The position numbers and the translations under genes are program-made. Source: Clostridiaceae bacterium (GTDB taxonomy: Bacteria > Bacillota > Clostridia > Saccharofermentanales > Saccharofermentanaceae). From it: a DNA stretch of 64,000 bases. Every line of letters starts with the position of its first letter. Position 1 is the first letter of the stretch. The stretch covers positions 1 to 64,000 of the forward strand of contig JAAYCT010000016.1 of NCBI GenBank assembly GCA_012729635.1, read 5' to 3'. Below are positions 18,140 to 26,604 of this stretch, in pieces. Below the pieces are notes generated by a model. The model was given only the letters and a program-made list of their open reading frames with translations. It was not told the DNA's origin and made no database searches.

Positions 18140-18982
18140 TCAGATTTTTTTGGTCAGTCCGGAAAGGACCCGACCGGGACCGATCTCTATGTGCTCGGGA
18201 TAGCCGTCCTCGCGAATTTTTTTGATTTCCTCGGTGAACCGGACGGGTGAAATCATCTGCATTTCCAAATATTCGGGGAAAAGAACCGAAGCGGGAATCC
18301 GGTCTGCGGAAAAGTTGGAGTAGACCGGGATTTGAGGGACGCGAAAAGAAATGCTTTCCGCGTATCTTTTAAGTTCCGCGGCCGCCTCGCCCATCAGCGG
18401 GGTGTGAAAAGCACCGTTGACCGCCAATCGGTGTGCCCGACGGGCACCCTCCGACAGAAGCGCTTCCGCCGCATTCTCCGTTTCGATCGCTTCTCCGGCG
18501 ATGACCAGTTGACCGGGGCAGTTGTAGTTGACTGCGTAGACGTTTTTGTAGCGTGCGACGATTTCCTCCACTTTTTCGTCCGGAAGACCGATGATTGCGA
18601 ACATGGAGCCGGGATTTCTTTTCGATGCTTCCTGCATCAGACGGGCCCGCTCGTTTACAAGCCGGATCAGATCAATGAATCCGATGATTCCGGCCGCGTA
18701 CAGGGCGGTATATTCCCCGAGCGAAAAGCCCGCCGCAACCGCGTCTTCCGCTTCCTTCAGGGAAGATATTCGTTTTTCGAGCGAGGCGACACTGTGTACG
18801 ACAATCGCGAGTTGTGCGAATCGTGTGTTTTCCAGTTGCTCCCGTGAAAGCGAGGTCAGATCGACTCCGAGTACGTCGCGTGCGGTTTCATAATACGCCC
18901 GTGCTTTGGGGAACTCCGCGATGATTTCATCGGCCATACTTTCGGTTTGAGTGCCCTGTCCGGGGAACAAATAGGATTTCAT
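18140..18982 (-). CDS. fabD: Malonyl-CoA:ACP transacylase
   Basis: A 280-residue enzyme moving malonate from CoA to acyl carrier protein. LFPGQGTQ opens the protein. The active-site serine is in GFSLGEY, where the family usually has GHSLGE; the catalytic His is in GAFHTPLM and Gln in FPGQGTQ. The substitution of the His next to the serine by Phe occurs in some clostridial relatives as far as I know and need not abolish activity. GGAGGT precedes the ATG. The gene is divergent from fabH, unlike the usual fabH-fabK-fabD-fabG order, and shares the operator region with it. A likely promoter on this strand is TTGAAA, 17 bases, TATTTT, overlapped by both FabT-like sites. Confidence 0.95.
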   Translation of the reverse strand: MKSYLFPGQGTQTESMADEIIAEFPKARAYYETARDVLGVDLTSLSREQLENTRFAQLAIVVHSVASLEKRISSLKEAEDAVAAGFSLGEYTALYAAGIIGFIDLIRLVNERARLMQEASKRNPGSMFAIIGLPDEKVEEIVARYKNVYAVNYNCPGQLVIAGEAIETENAAEALLSEGARRAHRLAVNGAFHTPLMGEAAAELKRYAESISFRVPQIPVYSNFSADRIPASVLFPEYLEMQMISPVRFTEEIKKIREDGYPEHIEIGPGRVLSGLTKKI

Positions 18983-19128: not shown

Positions 19129-20157
19129 GTGAATACGTCCTACAAAATTCTCGGCACCGGCTCCTATCTGCCCGAACTTACGGTGGATAACGAAATGTAT
19201 GCCAAAATCATTGATACCAGCGACGAGTGGATTACCTCCCGTACGGGCATTGCCCGTCGTCATCTGTGCGACGGTGAAACGACCTGGGAGATTGCCGTAA
19301 AGGCCGCCTCGATCGCACTTTCGGATGCCGGGATTTCTCCCGAATCCATCAACATGATTATCGTGACGACGATTACGCCGGACTACACGACCCCGAACAT
19401 GGCGACGATCATTCAGGCCGAAATGGGCGCCGAAAAAGCGTTTTGTTTCGATCTGAACGCGGCGTGTACCGGCTTTATTCAGGCGTTTGATGTTGCGATG
19501 CAATATATCATGAACCGGGATACTCCCTTCACCGCATTAATTGTCGCCGCGGAAAGTCTCTCGAAGCTCGTCGATTTCAGCGATCGGCGAACCTGTGTTT
19601 TGTTCGGTGACGGCGCGGGTGCCGTCGTTCTCTCCAATCGGGAGGCAAACGGCGATCGAATCGTGTCCGGTCGCGTCTACGAATCATTTTTCGGGGCGGA
19701 CGGAACCGGAGGCGGATATATGACCGGGAAAGCGTTTGAAGCCGCGAGCCACCCTTTTCGCAGTACGGATAAGCCGCATCGCGAGGATCGATTCGATCAC
19801 GAAACGGGTATCTTTCTTTCGATGAAGGGTCAGGAGGTGTATCGATTTGCGACCACGGCAATGCCTATGGCGATCGAAACCGTGCTGGAAAACGCGGGAA
19901 TCGCACTGGATGAAATCGATTATGTCGTCCCGCATCAGGCGAACGACCGTATTTTGCAGGCCGCGGCGAAGCGTATCGGACTCGACCCGGAAAAAATGCT
20001 CTCGAATATCGCGGAGACCGGGAATACATCCTCGGCTTCCATACCGATTTGTCTGGATCAGGAGATACGTTCCGGCCGCATCCGCCGCGGGCAGAACCTG
20101 ATTCTCACCGGGTTCGGCGGCGGTTTGACTTACGGCGCATGCGCCTGTGTGTATTGA
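19129..20157 (+). CDS. fabH: Beta-ketoacyl-ACP synthase III
   Basis: A 342-residue initiating condensing enzyme joining an acyl-CoA to malonyl-ACP. The catalytic triad is clear: Cys in NAACTGF, His in PHQANDRI and Asn in GNTSSASIP. The C-terminal GFGGGLTYGA glycine loop is normal. GTG at 19129 is chosen because AAGGAG at 19114-19119 is correctly spaced and the protein then begins NTSYKILGTGSYLPE; upstream codons would place the FabT-like operators inside the gene. It is the first gene of the plus-strand fatty acid operon. Confidence 0.96.
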   Translation: MNTSYKILGTGSYLPELTVDNEMYAKIIDTSDEWITSRTGIARRHLCDGETTWEIAVKAASIALSDAGISPESINMIIVTTITPDYTTPNMATIIQAEMGAEKAFCFDLNAACTGFIQAFDVAMQYIMNRDTPFTALIVAAESLSKLVDFSDRRTCVLFGDGAGAVVLSNREANGDRIVSGRVYESFFGADGTGGGYMTGKAFEAASHPFRSTDKPHREDRFDHETGIFLSMKGQEVYRFATTAMPMAIETVLENAGIALDEIDYVVPHQANDRILQAAAKRIGLDPEKMLSNIAETGNTSSASIPICLDQEIRSGRIRRGQNLILTGFGGGLTYGACACVY

Positions 20158-20173
20158 CGGGTGAAAGAATACG

Positions 20174-20281
20174 ATGAAAACGAATATGAACTGCATTCCG
20201 GGGACCCGATATCCGTTGATTCAAGGCGGGATGACCCGGGGTTCGGAAGCAAACTCCGCAGCAGCGGTCAATGTTTACTGA
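20174..20281 (+). pseudogene. fabK: Remnant of fabK (enoyl-ACP reductase II), 5' end only
   Basis: A 35-codon frame reads MKTNMNCIPGTRYPLIQGGM then TRGSEANSAAAVNVY and stops. FabK proteins begin in the same way: MKT, then about ten residues, YPI(I/F)QGGM, and an AAAV motif about ten residues later. The match covers only the first 32 or so of about 315 residues. It lies between fabH and fabG, exactly where fabK and fabD normally stand. I infer that fabK was deleted internally, perhaps in the same rearrangement that moved fabD to the opposite strand. No other enoyl reductase is present in the window. Confidence 0.65.
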
Positions 20282-20314
20282 ATACAAAAAATGAATGATT
20301 CAGGGAGGGTTAGT

Positions 20315-21073
20315 ATGATGGAAGTACTTTCGGAAAAGAAAGTGGCTATCGTGACCGGAGCCGCACGCGGAATCGGCGCGGAAATTGCGCGTACGCTTGC
20401 GTTGAAAGGATATCACATCGCACTCGTGGATTTACGGCTGTCCGAGGAACTGGAGAGCGTAAAAAAGGAATGCGTCGCCATCCAAAAGGATTGCCGGGTG
20501 ATCCTGCTCGCGGCGGATATTTCATTGGAAGAAGACTGTAAACACGCGGTTGAGGCGACCAAGGAGACCTTCGGCAGAGTGGATGTCCTGGTCAACAACG
20601 CGGGAAGGACCAAGGACGGCTTGGCGATGCGAATGGATCGCGATTCCTTTTCGGCGGTTATCGATACCAATCTGACCGGGGCATTCATGCTTTCCTCTCT
20701 TTGCCTTCCGATGATGGTCCGGCAAAAGAGCGGAAGGATTATTAATATGTCCTCTGTTTCCGGAATTTACGGGAATGCCGGTCAGGCGAATTACTCGGCA
20801 TCCAAGGCGGGGCTGATCGGTCTTACGAAAAGCCTTGCCAAGGAGATGGGCGGAAGAGGGATTACGGTCAACGCCGTCGCTCCGGGTTTCATTGAAACGC
20901 AAATGACCGACTCGCTTCCGGACAAAGTCAAGGAAGCGGCGATCGAGCGGATTCCGCTCAAACGTTTCGGGAAACCTTCGGATGTCGCCGAACTGGTCGT
21001 TTTTCTCGCGTCCGATGAAGCGTCGTACATCACCGGACAGGTTGTCGAGGTGTCCGGCGGATTGGTTCTTTAG
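20315..21073 (+). CDS. fabG: 3-oxoacyl-ACP reductase
   Basis: A 252-residue short-chain dehydrogenase reducing beta-ketoacyl-ACP with NADPH. The nucleotide motif is TGAARGIGAEIA, the structural NNAG motif is present, and the catalytic Ser-Tyr-Lys are in MSSVSGIYGNAGQANYSASK (S, Y and K visible). ATG at 20315, with GGGAGGG five bases ahead, starts MMEVLSEKKVAIVTG; an ATG three bases later is equally possible. The gene follows the fabK remnant, and its own ribosome binding site is strong. Confidence 0.96.
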   Translation: MMEVLSEKKVAIVTGAARGIGAEIARTLALKGYHIALVDLRLSEELESVKKECVAIQKDCRVILLAADISLEEDCKHAVEATKETFGRVDVLVNNAGRTKDGLAMRMDRDSFSAVIDTNLTGAFMLSSLCLPMMVRQKSGRIINMSSVSGIYGNAGQANYSASKAGLIGLTKSLAKEMGGRGITVNAVAPGFIETQMTDSLPDKVKEAAIERIPLKRFGKPSDVAELVVFLASDEASYITGQVVEVSGGLVL

Positions 21074-21138: not shown

Positions 21139-22434
21139 ATGTCGCAATCCCCCCCATCCAATTTTGATTTCAATGATCATGCCGGAAGGCCGCGCGTCGT
21201 TGTTACCGGCACCGGTGTTATTTCTCCGGTCGGAAAAAACACGGATGAGTTTTGGAATTCTCTGGTCGAGGGTCGGCACGGCATCGGAAAAATCGACAAG
21301 GAAATCTACCCGGGTGTGCGGGTCCATACCGCCGCCGAGGTCAAAAATTTCGACCCGACGCAGTACCTGGATCGAAAAGAGGTTCGAAGAACCGATCGAT
21401 ATTGTCAGTTTGCGATTGCGGCGGCAAAAGAAGCGATCGAAATGTCCGGGATCGACTTTTCGGCAATGGACCCGTTTGATACCGGAGTGATTATCGGATC
21501 CGGCGTCGGCGGACTGTCAACACTTCAGGATCAATTTGAAGAGTTGTTGGTGCGCGGCGGACCCGATCGGATTTCACCGCTTTTTATTCCGATGATGATC
21601 AGCAACATCGCAGCCGGGAAAATATCGATGATTTACGGAATCAAGGGTGCAAACTATTGTGTAACCACAGCTTGTGCATCCGGAACACACGCGATCGGCG
21701 AAGCTTTTCATAAGATTAAGCTCGGTTATCTGAAGGCGGCGGTCACCGGAGGCGCGGAAGCGCCGATAACTCGCGTGGCACTGGCCGGTTTTGCGAATAT
21801 GAAAGCGTTGTGCATGACCGATGATCCGGATCTTTCTTCGCTTCCCTTCGACTCGCGCAGAGGCGGATTTGTCATCGCCGAAGGTGCGGGAATTCTGATC
21901 CTGGAAACGATGGAGAACGCAATGAGCCGCGGTGCCCGAATTTTGGCGGAGATTGCGGGATACGGGGCCACCGCCGATGCGTATCACATAACCAGTCCGG
22001 ACCCCGAAGGCGTGGGTGCGGGAACGGCAATGAAGCTCGCCATGCGCGAGGCAGGTGTCTCTCCCGAGGAAATCGATTACATTAACGCGCACGGGACGGG
22101 TACTCCCCTGAACGACAAATTCGAAACACTGGCGATTAAGTTCGCATTGGGTGAAAAAATTGCTTCCAAGGTATCGATCAGCTCCACAAAGTCGGTTACC
22201 GGACACCTCCTGGGGGCGGCCGGCGGAGTCGAAGCCATCGCTTCCGTTATGGCGATTCAAAACGGCGTCATTCCGCCGACCGTCGGCCTCTCGGAACCGG
22301 ATCCGGATTGCGATTTGGACTATACGCCGCTTCGGCAGAAACAAAAAGAAATTCGAGTTGTATTGTCCAATTCATTAGGATTCGGCGGACAAAACGGAAC
22401 GCTTTTGTTAAGAAAGGCAGGGAACGAAATATGA
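21139..22434 (+). CDS. fabF: Beta-ketoacyl-ACP synthase II
   Basis: A 431-residue elongating condensing enzyme. The active-site Cys is in TTACASGTHAIG, and the two catalytic histidines are in NAHGTGTPLND and SVTGHLLGAAGG. An extension of about 18 residues precedes the usual PRVVVTGTGVISPVG start. AGGAGGAG stands just before the ATG. The stop overlaps the accB start (ATGA), coupling chain elongation and malonyl-CoA supply genes. Confidence 0.96.
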   Translation: MSQSPPSNFDFNDHAGRPRVVVTGTGVISPVGKNTDEFWNSLVEGRHGIGKIDKEIYPGVRVHTAAEVKNFDPTQYLDRKEVRRTDRYCQFAIAAAKEAIEMSGIDFSAMDPFDTGVIIGSGVGGLSTLQDQFEELLVRGGPDRISPLFIPMMISNIAAGKISMIYGIKGANYCVTTACASGTHAIGEAFHKIKLGYLKAAVTGGAEAPITRVALAGFANMKALCMTDDPDLSSLPFDSRRGGFVIAEGAGILILETMENAMSRGARILAEIAGYGATADAYHITSPDPEGVGAGTAMKLAMREAGVSPEEIDYINAHGTGTPLNDKFETLAIKFALGEKIASKVSISSTKSVTGHLLGAAGGVEAIASVMAIQNGVIPPTVGLSEPDPDCDLDYTPLRQKQKEIRVVLSNSLGFGGQNGTLLLRKAGNEI

Positions 22435-22970
22435 CTCCGGAAATGAAAAAAGCAAACGACGGAAACGATCGAATCGGTTCATCGGGACTGTCATTTTGTC
22501 AAATCAAGGAAATCATGTCCCTGATGAATCAAGAGGGAATTACTGATTTTCGAATGGACGAGGGCGAAAACCGTCTGAGAATCAAAAGAAAATCGAGCTC
22601 GAAAATGATATCTGCGGAAAGCGATTCCCGATTCGTTATATCCGAGCGGTGCCCGTCAAATCATAACCGTGACGGGGAACCGAAATCAGCGGAATCAAAA
22701 CGGACCGGACACATCGTCACGTCACCGGTTGTCGGGGTATTCTATGATACGCCCGCTCCCGAGCAACCGCCTTATGTGGAGGTCGGGTCCTTCGTCAATA
22801 AGGGGGACGTTCTTTGTATTATCGAGGCGATGAAGCTGATGAACGAAGTGACCAGCCCGGTCACCGGCACGATCAAGGAAATCCTTGTGTTACAAGCCAG
22901 TCGGGTCGAATTCGGTCAGGAGTTGTTTGTGATTGATCCGAGCGACAAAAAGGAGTCCGAGAATGAGTGA
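22431..22970 (+). CDS. accB: Biotin carboxyl carrier protein of acetyl-CoA carboxylase
   Basis: A 179-residue carrier. The C-terminal biotinyl domain (about residues 100-175) has the biotin lysine in IEAMKLMNEV and the preceding PPYVEVGSFVNKGD turn. The N-terminal helix LSFCQIKEIMSLMNQEGITD is the usual AccC-binding region, joined by a flexible charged linker. The start overlaps the end of fabF by four bases and the stop overlaps fabZ by eight. Confidence 0.96.
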   Translation: MTPEMKKANDGNDRIGSSGLSFCQIKEIMSLMNQEGITDFRMDEGENRLRIKRKSSSKMISAESDSRFVISERCPSNHNRDGEPKSAESKRTGHIVTSPVVGVFYDTPAPEQPPYVEVGSFVNKGDVLCIIEAMKLMNEVTSPVTGTIKEILVLQASRVEFGQELFVIDPSDKKESENE

Positions 22971-23412
22971 AATGCCGATTATGAACCGATCCGACATCGA
23001 AGCGATCATTCCGCACAGAGAACCGTTCATCTTGGTCGACGAGGTGACGGAAATGGATGATGAGCATATTGTCGCGCATAAATTCGTCCGCGCCGACGAA
23101 TATTATTTTCAAGGCCATTTCCCCGAAATGCCGGTCATGCCGGGGGTGCTGATTGTTGAATCCATGGCACAGGCAGGCGCGATTGTCGCACTTAAAAAGC
23201 CCGAAAACAAAGGGAAAATCGCTTTTTTCGCGGGGATCGACAAGGTTCGTTTTAAAAAGAGTGTGTTCCCCGGAGATACGATGCGACTGGAGGTCCGGAT
23301 GACACGCCAACGCGGACCGATCGGATTCGGCGAAGGCAAAGCCTATGTCGGAGATTCGCTTTGCGCGTCCGCGGAAATCATGTTTGCCGTCGGCGACGCA
23401 AAAAAGGATTGA
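22963..23412 (+). CDS. fabZ: 3-hydroxyacyl-ACP dehydratase
   Basis: A 149-residue hot-dog fold enzyme removing water from 3-hydroxyacyl-ACP. The catalytic His is in YYFQGHFPEMPVMPGVL, and the Glu follows in LIVESMAQAG. The N-terminal IIPHREPFILVDEV is typical. The ATG at 22963 has AAAAGGAG in the end of accB. As FabZ alone is present, no unsaturated fatty acid isomerase can be assumed. Confidence 0.96.
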   Translation: MSEMPIMNRSDIEAIIPHREPFILVDEVTEMDDEHIVAHKFVRADEYYFQGHFPEMPVMPGVLIVESMAQAGAIVALKKPENKGKIAFFAGIDKVRFKKSVFPGDTMRLEVRMTRQRGPIGFGEGKAYVGDSLCASAEIMFAVGDAKKD

Positions 23413-23425
23413 GCGAGGGAAAGAA

Positions 23426-24784
23426 ATGTTTCGAAAAATTTTGATTGCAAACCGGGGAGAAATCGCCGTAACGATCATTCGAGCCTGTCGCGAAATGGGA
23501 ATCCTAAGCGTAGCGGTTTGTTCCGAAGCGGACCGGGAAGCGTTGCATTCGCAACTCGCGGACGAATGTGTTTGTATCGGGCCCGCCGCCTCGAAGGGCA
23601 GTTACCTGAATATGCAGGCCATCCTGTCCGCTTGTCTGACGACCGGTGCGGAAGCAATTCATCCGGGGTTTGGGTTTTTATCCGAGAACCCGGTCTTTGC
23701 CCGTCTTTGCGAGAAGTGCGGTATCCGTTTTATCGGGCCGACCGCACAGGTCATGGATATGATGGGTAATAAATCCAACGCGCGTCGAACGGCGGAACAG
23801 GCCGGGCTTCCGATTGTTCCCGGATCTTCCGGCTCCGTATCGGATTTGGGCAGTGCCATCCGGGATGCGGCGCGAATCGGATATCCGGTGTTGGTCAAGG
23901 CATCGTCCGGGGGCGGAGGCCGCGGTATGCGGATTGCCAACTCGGAGGCGGATCTTCAGTCCGCCTATCAAATGGCCAAAGCAGAGGCGAAGGCGTGTTT
24001 CGGAAATGATGAGGTTTATCTTGAAAAACTGATCATTGAACCCCGGCACATCGAAATACAGTTGCTTTGCGATGAATACGGGCATGCGATTCATTTGGGT
24101 GATCGGGATTGCTCCGTTCAACGCCGAAACCAAAAAATTCTTGAGGAAGCCTCATCGCCGTTCATGAGCGATGAACTGAGAATTCGAATGGGCGGTGCCG
24201 CGGTTTGTCTGGCAAGAAAAATCGGGTATACCGGTGTCGGCACGATTGAATTTCTTGTCGACCGCGACCGGAATTTCTATTTTATGGAAATGAACACACG
24301 CATTCAGGTCGAGCATCCGATCAGTGAGGCAATCACCGGCGTAAATCTGATTCAGGAGCAAATCCGCAGTGCCGCCGGTGAGTTGCTCCGTTACTCGCAA
24401 AGAGATATCGTTTTTCACGGACATTCGATGGAGTGTCGAATCAACGCGGAAGATCCCGAAAATGATTTTCGACCGTGCCCCGGTACCATCCGAACCCTGT
24501 ATTTACCCGGAGGACCCGGCGTTCGTATCGATTCGGCCGCCTATCCGGGGTATACGATTCCGCCGTACTATGATTCGCTTCTCGCGAAGGTAATCGTTCA
24601 CGCACCTACACGGGAAGAAGCGATTGCACGGATGCGACGTGCGCTCACGGAGTTTGTCATCACGGGCGTTACGACAAATATTGATTTTCATCTCGCGATT
24701 CTTCGCGAGCCGGATTTTATTCGCGGTCACTACGATAATACATATCTGGGCCGAAAAAGAGAGATCCTTCTTTGCGCGGAGTAA
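23426..24784 (+). CDS. accC: Biotin carboxylase subunit of acetyl-CoA carboxylase
   Basis: A 452-residue ATP-grasp enzyme carboxylating the biotin on AccB. It starts FRKILIANRGEIAVTIIRAC. The ATP loop is KASSGGGGRGMR, and the catalytic region contains MEMNTRIQVEHPI with the key Glu, Asn and Arg. Length is standard. GAGGGA precedes ATG, and 13 bases separate it from fabZ. Confidence 0.97.
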   Translation: MFRKILIANRGEIAVTIIRACREMGILSVAVCSEADREALHSQLADECVCIGPAASKGSYLNMQAILSACLTTGAEAIHPGFGFLSENPVFARLCEKCGIRFIGPTAQVMDMMGNKSNARRTAEQAGLPIVPGSSGSVSDLGSAIRDAARIGYPVLVKASSGGGGRGMRIANSEADLQSAYQMAKAEAKACFGNDEVYLEKLIIEPRHIEIQLLCDEYGHAIHLGDRDCSVQRRNQKILEEASSPFMSDELRIRMGGAAVCLARKIGYTGVGTIEFLVDRDRNFYFMEMNTRIQVEHPISEAITGVNLIQEQIRSAAGELLRYSQRDIVFHGHSMECRINAEDPENDFRPCPGTIRTLYLPGGPGVRIDSAAYPGYTIPPYYDSLLAKVIVHAPTREEAIARMRRALTEFVITGVTTNIDFHLAILREPDFIRGHYDNTYLGRKREILLCAE

Positions 24785-24819: not shown

Positions 24820-26604
24820 ATGGATGATTCGTTTTCGACGATCCGGTCCCGCCTTGAGGCGAACCGGAAATACTGGGAAGAAAAAGAGGCCGCTGAAAAG
24901 AGCAGTGTGCGCGGCGAGGTCGGACAAACCGGAGTCAAGGATCGATTCAGTTATCTGATGCCGATTCCCGATGACCTCTGGGTGCGTTGCTCCTCATGTC
25001 AAGGCGTTATGCTTCGCGAGGATTTTGAGGAAAACCGAAGTGTGTGTCTTCATTGCGGGCACTGTTTCCGGGTGAACGCACACGAACGACTGGCGATGAC
25101 GGTGGACGAAGGGTCCTTTGAGGAGCTCTGGGAAACCCTGTACGGCAAAGATCCGATTTCCTTTCCGAGATACGGACATCGTTTGGGCAAGCTTCGTGAA
25201 AAGACGGGCATGACCGAGGCGGTCATTGTCGGAAGCGCGAAAATCGGCGGGTATCCTCTGATGATCGGTGCGATGGATTCGAATTTCCTGATGGGCTCGA
25301 TGGGGTCGGCCGTCGGTGAAAAAATTACCAGACTGTTTGAGACCGCTACCGAAAAAAAACTCCCCGTTGTTTTATTTACCGCCTCGGGCGGAGCCAGAAT
25401 GCAGGAAGGCATCGTATCGCTGATGCAGATGGCCAAGACTGCGGGCGCGGTCGAACGACACCATCGAGCGGGCTTGCTCTATATCTGCGTGATGACTGAT
25501 CCGACGACCGGGGGCGTGACGGCGAGTTTTGCCTCTTTGGGCGACATTATTCTCTCCGAGCCGGATACTCTGATCGGATTTGCCGGCAGAAGGGTCATCG
25601 AAGGGACCATTGCGCAAGCTCTTCCGGAGGATTTCCAGCGATCGGAATTCATCCTGAAGCACGGCTTTCTTGATCGAATCGTCACTCGTGATGAGATGCG
25701 TCGTGAGCTCACGGAACTTCTCGCGCTTCACTCCGGTAAAAAGGTTCCCGGCCCCGATACCGACGCGCCGAGAGGTCGTCTTCCCGCGCTTCCGAAGCAT
25801 CGGAGCACCGGTTCCGAGTGTTTGTCGATCATAAGGAATCGGGAACGCCCTACGCTGAATGATTATCTTCCGATGATTTTTACCGATATTCACGAGATGC
25901 ACGGCGACCGGTATTTTGCGGACGACCGCGCGATGTTCACCGGAATCGGTCGACTGAACGGTCGTCCGGTCACGATTATCGGCCATCGGAAAGGGAAAAC
26001 GCTTTTAGAGAATCAGGAATGTAATTTCGGAATGCCGCACCCGGAGGGGTATCGAAAAGCACTGCGCGCGATTCGTCAGGCTGAAAAATTTGCACGTCCG
26101 GTTATAACGATCATCGATACGCCCGGAGCGTATTGCGGTGTTGCCGCGGAAGAGCGCGGACAGGGCGAAGCGATTGCCCGAAACCTTACGGAGATTATGC
26201 CGGCTCGTACGCCGATCATCAGTATCGTAATCGGAGAAGGCGGCAGTGGCGGAGCCTTGGGAATCGCGGTATGCGACGAGCTTGCCATGACGTCAAACGC
26301 AATCTATTCGGTCATTTCTCCGCGCGGCTTTGCGTCCCTGCTCTGGAAGGATCCGTCCCGTGAAAACGAGGCGGCCGATACGGCGCACATCACGGCCTAT
26401 GACCTTAAAGATTTATCCATTTGCGATACGATTCTTGCGGAGCCGGACGGCGGTGCCCATTCCGGTGCCGAGCGCATGGCGGCTACGCTTAAAACCTATC
26501 TTCTCGGTGCCGTCGACCGACACGCGAAGGCGTTTTCCAAGGACCCGGACAAGGCACTCGAGTCTCGTTACCAGCGTTTTCGAAGGATTGGAGATTGCTC
26601 CTAA
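24820..26604 (+). CDS. accDA: Fused acetyl-CoA carboxylase carboxyltransferase (AccD-AccA)
   Basis: A 594-residue single chain combining both carboxyltransferase subunits. The first half (about 1-310) is AccD-like with the zinc finger CSSC...CLHCGHC near residue 50 and FTASGGARMQEGIVSLMQM. The second half (about 330-590) is AccA-like with LNDYLPMIFTDIHEMHGDR, IDTPGAYCGVAAEERGQGEA and VIGEGGSGGALGIA. Normally these are separate proteins of about 290 and 320 residues forming an alpha2beta2 complex. There is no sign of a frame change in the linker (GKKVPGPDTDAPRGRLPAL), so the fusion looks real. It closes the fatty acid operon. Confidence 0.95.
   Translation: MDDSFSTIRSRLEANRKYWEEKEAAEKSSVRGEVGQTGVKDRFSYLMPIPDDLWVRCSSCQGVMLREDFEENRSVCLHCGHCFRVNAHERLAMTVDEGSFEELWETLYGKDPISFPRYGHRLGKLREKTGMTEAVIVGSAKIGGYPLMIGAMDSNFLMGSMGSAVGEKITRLFETATEKKLPVVLFTASGGARMQEGIVSLMQMAKTAGAVERHHRAGLLYICVMTDPTTGGVTASFASLGDIILSEPDTLIGFAGRRVIEGTIAQALPEDFQRSEFILKHGFLDRIVTRDEMRRELTELLALHSGKKVPGPDTDAPRGRLPALPKHRSTGSECLSIIRNRERPTLNDYLPMIFTDIHEMHGDRYFADDRAMFTGIGRLNGRPVTIIGHRKGKTLLENQECNFGMPHPEGYRKALRAIRQAEKFARPVITIIDTPGAYCGVAAEERGQGEAIARNLTEIMPARTPIISIVIGEGGSGGALGIAVCDELAMTSNAIYSVISPRGFASLLWKDPSRENEAADTAHITAYDLKDLSICDTILAEPDGGAHSGAERMAATLKTYLLGAVDRHAKAFSKDPDKALESRYQRFRRIGDCS

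What the first reader, a model, noticed from the sequence alone, without database searches (positions are those of the whole stretch)
20174..20281. Vestige of fabK between fabH and fabG
A 35-codon frame matches the FabK N-terminus (MKT start, YPLIQGGM, AAAV at the right spacing) and then stops. It sits where fabK and fabD usually are, while fabD itself now points the other way on the far side of fabH. This looks like a footprint of a rearrangement that removed the enoyl-ACP reductase from the cluster. The cell must then have another enoyl reductase elsewhere or take fatty acids from outside.
Basis: partly seen in the sequence, partly recalled or inferred. Interest (0 to 1): 0.65.

Follow-up and report, generated by a model that had tools for sequence, protein, structure and literature searches.

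The report
Decayed fabK gene in fatty-acid operon
A bacterium has lost most of fabK, the gene for the last enzyme of each fatty-acid elongation cycle, by an internal 791-base deletion, yet keeps the rest of the fatty-acid operon intact and shows no recognisable replacement in its nearly complete genome.

Summary
The 35-codon frame at 20174-20281 is the first 32 codons of fabK: same-genus genomes carry an intact 311-codon fabK at the same place, 61% identical over the fragment (E 4e-7). The last ~48 nt of fabK also survive (about 20270-20318), out of frame and with an internal stop. So fabK lost exactly 791 bp between two surviving ends, a frameshifting internal deletion. The ends have decayed: 9 of 27 residues conserved in the relatives are changed, against 5.5% in neighbouring fab genes (P = 1.5e-5). 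That argues against an assembly error or a conserved small protein.

The fabD pointing away from fabH is ancestral, seen in related genera with an intact fabK, so there was no fabD rearrangement. The rest of the cluster is intact and evolving at normal rates. Searches of the 96.65%-complete genome found no FabK, no FabV, no SDR that classifies as FabI/FabL, and no OYE, acyl-CoA dehydrogenase, MDR or FakB. AMP-forming fatty-acyl ligases are present. The cell therefore uses an unbinned or unrecognised enoyl reductase, or depends on external fatty acids.

The parts
18140..18982 (-). fabD (malonyl-CoA:ACP transacylase), divergent from fabH; ancestral layout
   Evidence: tblastn to same-place fabD in relatives, 55-69% id
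19129..20157 (+). fabH (KAS III), intact
   Evidence: TIGR00747 328.9 bits, cut-off 292.1; synteny
20174..20269 (+). 5' remnant of fabK: codons 1-32 of 311, then frame-shifted nonsense to a TGA at 20279-20281
20268..20271 (.). Deletion junction: 791 bp of fabK missing relative to each congeneric copy (791 is not a multiple of 3)
   Evidence: alignment A1
20270..20318 (+). 3' remnant of fabK: reads MFTEYKK*MIQGGLV* from 20271 against MFTEYEKIMSRGGSI* in relatives; includes the fabK stop (TGA 20316-20318), which overlaps the fabG start, and the likely Shine-Dalgarno of fabG (GGGAGGG 20303-20309)
20318..21073 (+). fabG, intact (ATG at 20318; 20315 also possible)
   Evidence: TIGR01830 317.4 bits, cut-off 297.75
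21139..22434 (+). fabF, intact
   Evidence: 70-85% id to relatives
22434..22970 (+). accB (start approximate), intact
22963..23412 (+). fabZ, intact
   Evidence: 63-86% id
23427..24784 (+). accC (start approximate), intact
   Evidence: 75-88% id
24820..26604 (+). accD-accA fused in one 594-codon frame, intact; fused in the relatives too

Best explanation
Shown: the feature is a pseudogene. The ancestor of this genome had fabD(divergent)-fabH-fabK-fabG-fabF-accB-fabZ-accC-accDA, as its relatives still have; an internal out-of-frame deletion removed 791 of the 936 bp of fabK, including the catalytic His144-equivalent, leaving 32 5' codons and ~48 3' nt. What remains is drifting, while the fabG Shine-Dalgarno and start, which lie in the old fabK 3' end, are kept. 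Inferred: the rest of the FAS II cluster is still used, because it evolves as slowly as in the relatives, so enoyl reduction must be done by an enzyme encoded elsewhere (an unbinned, perhaps horizontally acquired, enoyl reductase; one of the genome's unassigned SDRs; or a class not yet recognised). My estimate is about 0.65 for a replacement enzyme and about 0.3 for dependence on external fatty acids; the confidence below is for the pseudogene statement.
For: Homology and synteny. Precise 791-bp gap against three congeneric copies and a surviving 3' end. Decay: 9/27 residues conserved in three congeneric FabKs are changed, against 54/988 in fabH, fabG, fabF, accB and fabZ on the same branch (Fisher P 1.5e-5); pN of the remnant 0.22-0.25 against 0.04-0.07 between congeners; an in-frame stop within the 3' remnant. 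Neighbours not relaxed: 5.5% of conserved residues changed on this branch against 5.7% on the G001 branch. No second fabK in the genome: TIGR03151 gives no match, PF03060 gives only a PyrD-like gene. His144 of S. pneumoniae FabK aligns within the deleted part (role from PMC9260719).
Against: No replacement enzyme was found, so the second half is inference. The genome is a 44-contig assembly, 96.65% complete; a second enoyl reductase could lie in the missing part. accC shows somewhat more changes on this branch (20/363 against 8/351 on the G001 branch). Only one genome of this species is held, so the deletion could not be confirmed in a second strain.
Confidence: 0.9

Rival explanations
1. Assembly or binning error: the genome has an intact fabK and the 791-bp gap was created in assembly.
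For: The genome is a multi-contig assembly with 2.37% contamination.
Against: An assembly join would leave intact ends; here both ends carry replacements at otherwise conserved sites and there is a stop codon in the 3' part. The gap lies inside an 88-kb contig and there is no other fabK copy.
Confidence: 0.03
2. The cell has become dependent on external fatty acids, taken up through AMP-forming acyl-CoA/acyl-ACP ligases, and the rest of the fab cluster serves a residual purpose or is only starting to decay. (This is a rival to the second half of the best explanation, not to the pseudogene itself.)
For: Nine AMP-binding matches, several resembling fatty-acyl ligases; no enoyl reductase found. 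Streptococci partly bypass FabK inhibition with external fatty acids (PMC11091888).
Against: All other fab/acc genes are intact and about as constrained as in relatives, although the remnant is old enough to have lost a third of its conserved residues. No FakB/DegV protein. Any use of the elongation cycle needs an enoyl reductase.
Confidence: 0.3
3. The 35-codon frame is a functional small protein or leader peptide kept to couple translation to fabG.
For: The frame starts at the original fabK ATG and ends upstream of fabG; the fabG Shine-Dalgarno and TGATG overlap are kept.
Against: Its amino-acid sequence is not conserved (9/27 conserved residues changed), and the significant hits in relatives are all full-length fabK, none truncated. 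Its stop lies 36 nt before the fabG start, not overlapping it.
Confidence: 0.05

Closest known systems
FabK, FMN-dependent enoyl-ACP reductase II (TIGR03151; solved structures 2Z6I and 7L00)
   Same: N-terminal 32 residues, C-terminal tail, and place between fabH and fabG as in relatives
   Different: 791 of 936 bp deleted, including the region aligned to catalytic His144; not a functional enzyme
Ordinary bacterial pseudogenes made by internal deletion
   Same: Surviving ends, frameshift, stop codons, faster change at conserved sites
   Different: The gene encodes a step of an essential pathway, the rest of the operon is kept, and no recognisable substitute was found

Membership tests
FabK (remnant of) | Significant similarity to FabK at the same gene position | tested here: met
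   E 4.1e-7 to the congeneric gene that passes TIGR03151; synteny; DNA alignment of both ends
FabK (functional enzyme) | Complete FMN-binding TIM barrel with catalytic His144 equivalent | tested here: not met
   Only codons 1-32 and an out-of-frame tail remain; the His lies in the deleted part
FabK (functional enzyme) | Score above the TIGR03151 cut-off (453.1 bits) | tested here: not met
   12.5 bits
Pseudogene | Loss of purifying selection relative to neighbours | tested here: met
   9/27 against 54/988 conserved residues changed, P 1.5e-5
Conserved small protein | Same short intact frame in several genomes | tested here: not met
   58 genomes searched; no significant hit in a relative is a truncated frame
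Genome with alternative enoyl reductase FabV | PF12241 match | tested here: not met
   None in the own genome; the same search rings in 6 genomes of the order
Genome with alternative enoyl reductase FabI/FabL | SDR that best matches FabI/FabL models | tested here: not met
   Six SDR matches: FabG, one over the cut-off for the EF-P aminopentanone reductase YmfI, and four unassigned SDRs; no FabI/FabL model among the families shown. A diverged SDR with enoyl reductase activity is not excluded
Genome with FabMG-type enoyl reductase | ~438-aa SDR with Yx5K (PMC9260719) | not tested

The most novel reading that the evidence does not exclude
The genome runs a complete, selected FAS II pathway with an enoyl-ACP reductase outside all described classes (FabI, FabL, FabK, FabV, FabMG), acquired before or with the loss of fabK.
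Probability: 0.15. Interest if true: 0.75.

Novelty: new member of a known kind. Interest (0 to 1): 0.42.

Why it matters
It is a natural fabK knockout in which the remaining pathway still appears to be under selection, which points to a substitute enoyl reductase that can be sought by comparing this species with its fabK-bearing congeners. FabK is a narrow-spectrum antibacterial target (PMC11091888), so natural ways of doing without it are of interest. As a gene-decay event it is ordinary.

Tried and rejected
The fabD-rearrangement reading: rejected, since divergent fabD predates the loss. A second fabK elsewhere in the genome: none; weak matches on C2, C5 and C23 are a frame with stops, a HisF region and PyrD. 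FabI/FabL, FabV, OYE, acyl-CoA dehydrogenase and MDR reductases: none found. FakB: none. A literature search for fabK pseudogenes in Clostridia gave no papers, and a search for genomes missing an enoyl reductase gave nothing that I followed up. A first attempt at dN/dS for accB and accC used a wrong frame and was discarded; accC and accDA were redone. The script stopped with an error after accC; the counts it printed before that are used.

Full report
Observation. The window holds, between fabH (ends 20157) and fabG (starts 20318), an ORF of 35 codons at 20174-20281, MKTNMNCIPGTRYPLIQGGMTRGSEANSAAAVNVY. In a search of 58 whole genomes of relatives it matches the first 33 residues of long open frames (311-388 aa), best in the two held congeners (61% identity, E 4.1e-7 and 1.4e-6) and then in the nearest genera. 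Those long frames are FabK: they exceed the curated TIGR03151 cut-off, and the congeneric protein aligns over nearly its whole length to solved FabK structures 7L00 and 2Z6I. By itself the fragment is too short and too diverged for a significant family score (E 0.066), so the close relatives carry the case.

What is left of fabK. The DNA alignment of window 20120-20400 with three congeneric loci shows one gap of exactly 791 bp in each comparison. Upstream of it remain 32 codons; downstream remain about 48 nt of the fabK 3' end, reading MFTEYKK*MIQGGLV* from 20271 where a relative reads MFTEYEKIMSRGGSI*. The deletion is not a multiple of three, so the 5' part runs into a TGA at 20279 and the 3' part lies in another frame with its own stop. 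The fabK stop, which overlaps the fabG start in two congeneric copies (TAATG), survives as TGATG, and the GGGAGG before fabG is kept (sequence). The deleted part includes the residue aligned to the putative catalytic His144 of S. pneumoniae FabK (PMC9260719).

It is decayed, not merely cut. Of 27 residues identical in the three congeneric FabKs, 9 differ here, for example MAWVADANLAAAV to MTRGSEANSAAAV. In five neighbouring genes the same count is 54 of 988 (Fisher P 1.5e-5). Non-synonymous divergence of the remnant from the congeners is 0.22-0.25 against 0.04-0.07 among the congeners. An assembly error would not produce this, and a conserved small protein would not show it.

In every relative examined from genera g1, g3 and g5 the order is fabD (divergent), fabH, fabK, fabG, fabF, accB, fabZ, accC, accDA; a genome from another family of the order has fabD, fabH, fabK and fabG in the same layout (L009). 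In genera g2 and g4 the order is fabH-fabK-fabD. So the divergent fabD predates the loss of fabK and has nothing to do with it.

Is there another enoyl reductase? The genome as held is 2.15 Mb in 44 contigs, 96.65% complete. No FabK: TIGR03151 gives no match in this genome, while 37 of the 58 genomes searched pass its cut-off, and the only PF03060 match is a PyrD-like gene. No FabV: PF12241 is absent here but rings in six genomes of the order, which serves as control. The six SDR matches are FabG, one over the YmfI cut-off and four unassigned SDRs; none matches a FabI or FabL model among the families shown. No OYE-type, acyl-CoA-dehydrogenase or MDR protein, each with working controls. FabMG-like enzymes were not tested.

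Where it comes from. The congeners are unnamed uncultured Clostridia: the fabH-bearing records of the nearest ones are MAGs 'Clostridiaceae bacterium isolate AS10tlH2TH_129' (JAAYIQ01) and 'Clostridiales bacterium isolate Zod_Metabat.14' (JAFGGR01).

Consequences. The elongation cycle cannot turn without enoyl reduction (established biochemistry). The remaining cluster is intact, and on this branch its conserved residues changed no more often than on the G001 branch (5.5% against 5.7% over fabH, fabG, fabF, accB and fabZ), even though the remnant has had time to lose a third of its conserved residues; accC alone is somewhat faster. I therefore infer that FAS II is still used and that an enzyme elsewhere supplies the step: in the missing part of the genome or unbinned, an unassigned SDR, or a new class. 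The rival is dependence on external fatty acids: FakB is absent, but there are several acyl-ligase-like AMP-binding proteins, and fatty acids partly bypass FabK inhibition in streptococci though not in Fusobacterium nucleatum (PMC11091888).

Verdict. The vestige is real and well explained as an internal-deletion pseudogene of fabK. The event itself is ordinary; the missing enoyl reductase in a pathway that still looks selected is the interesting part and remains open.

Noticed in passing
window 24820-26604: accD and accA are fused in one 594-codon frame; the fusion is shared by the relatives examined.
   Followed up: partly
related genomes G034, G036, G039, G040, G046, G048, G052, G055: Several genomes of the same order, two of them single-contig, have neither a strong FabK match nor FabV, while G041 has both: the enoyl reductase type seems labile in this order. 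FabI was not tested in them.
   Followed up: no
G009 and G027, same family: No FabK found although all other members of the family searched have it; incomplete assembly or further losses.
   Followed up: no
G002 contigs C230 and C146 (L023, L024): Two different copies of the fab cluster, each with an intact fabK; either a true duplication or a second organism in the bin (contamination 5%).
   Followed up: partly
G000:C29:73592-74758 (L058): An acyl-ligase domain sits in an 898-aa open frame behind a ~330-residue N-terminal part that by eye resembles a sugar phosphate isomerase/epimerase (TIM barrel); an unusual fusion.
   Followed up: no
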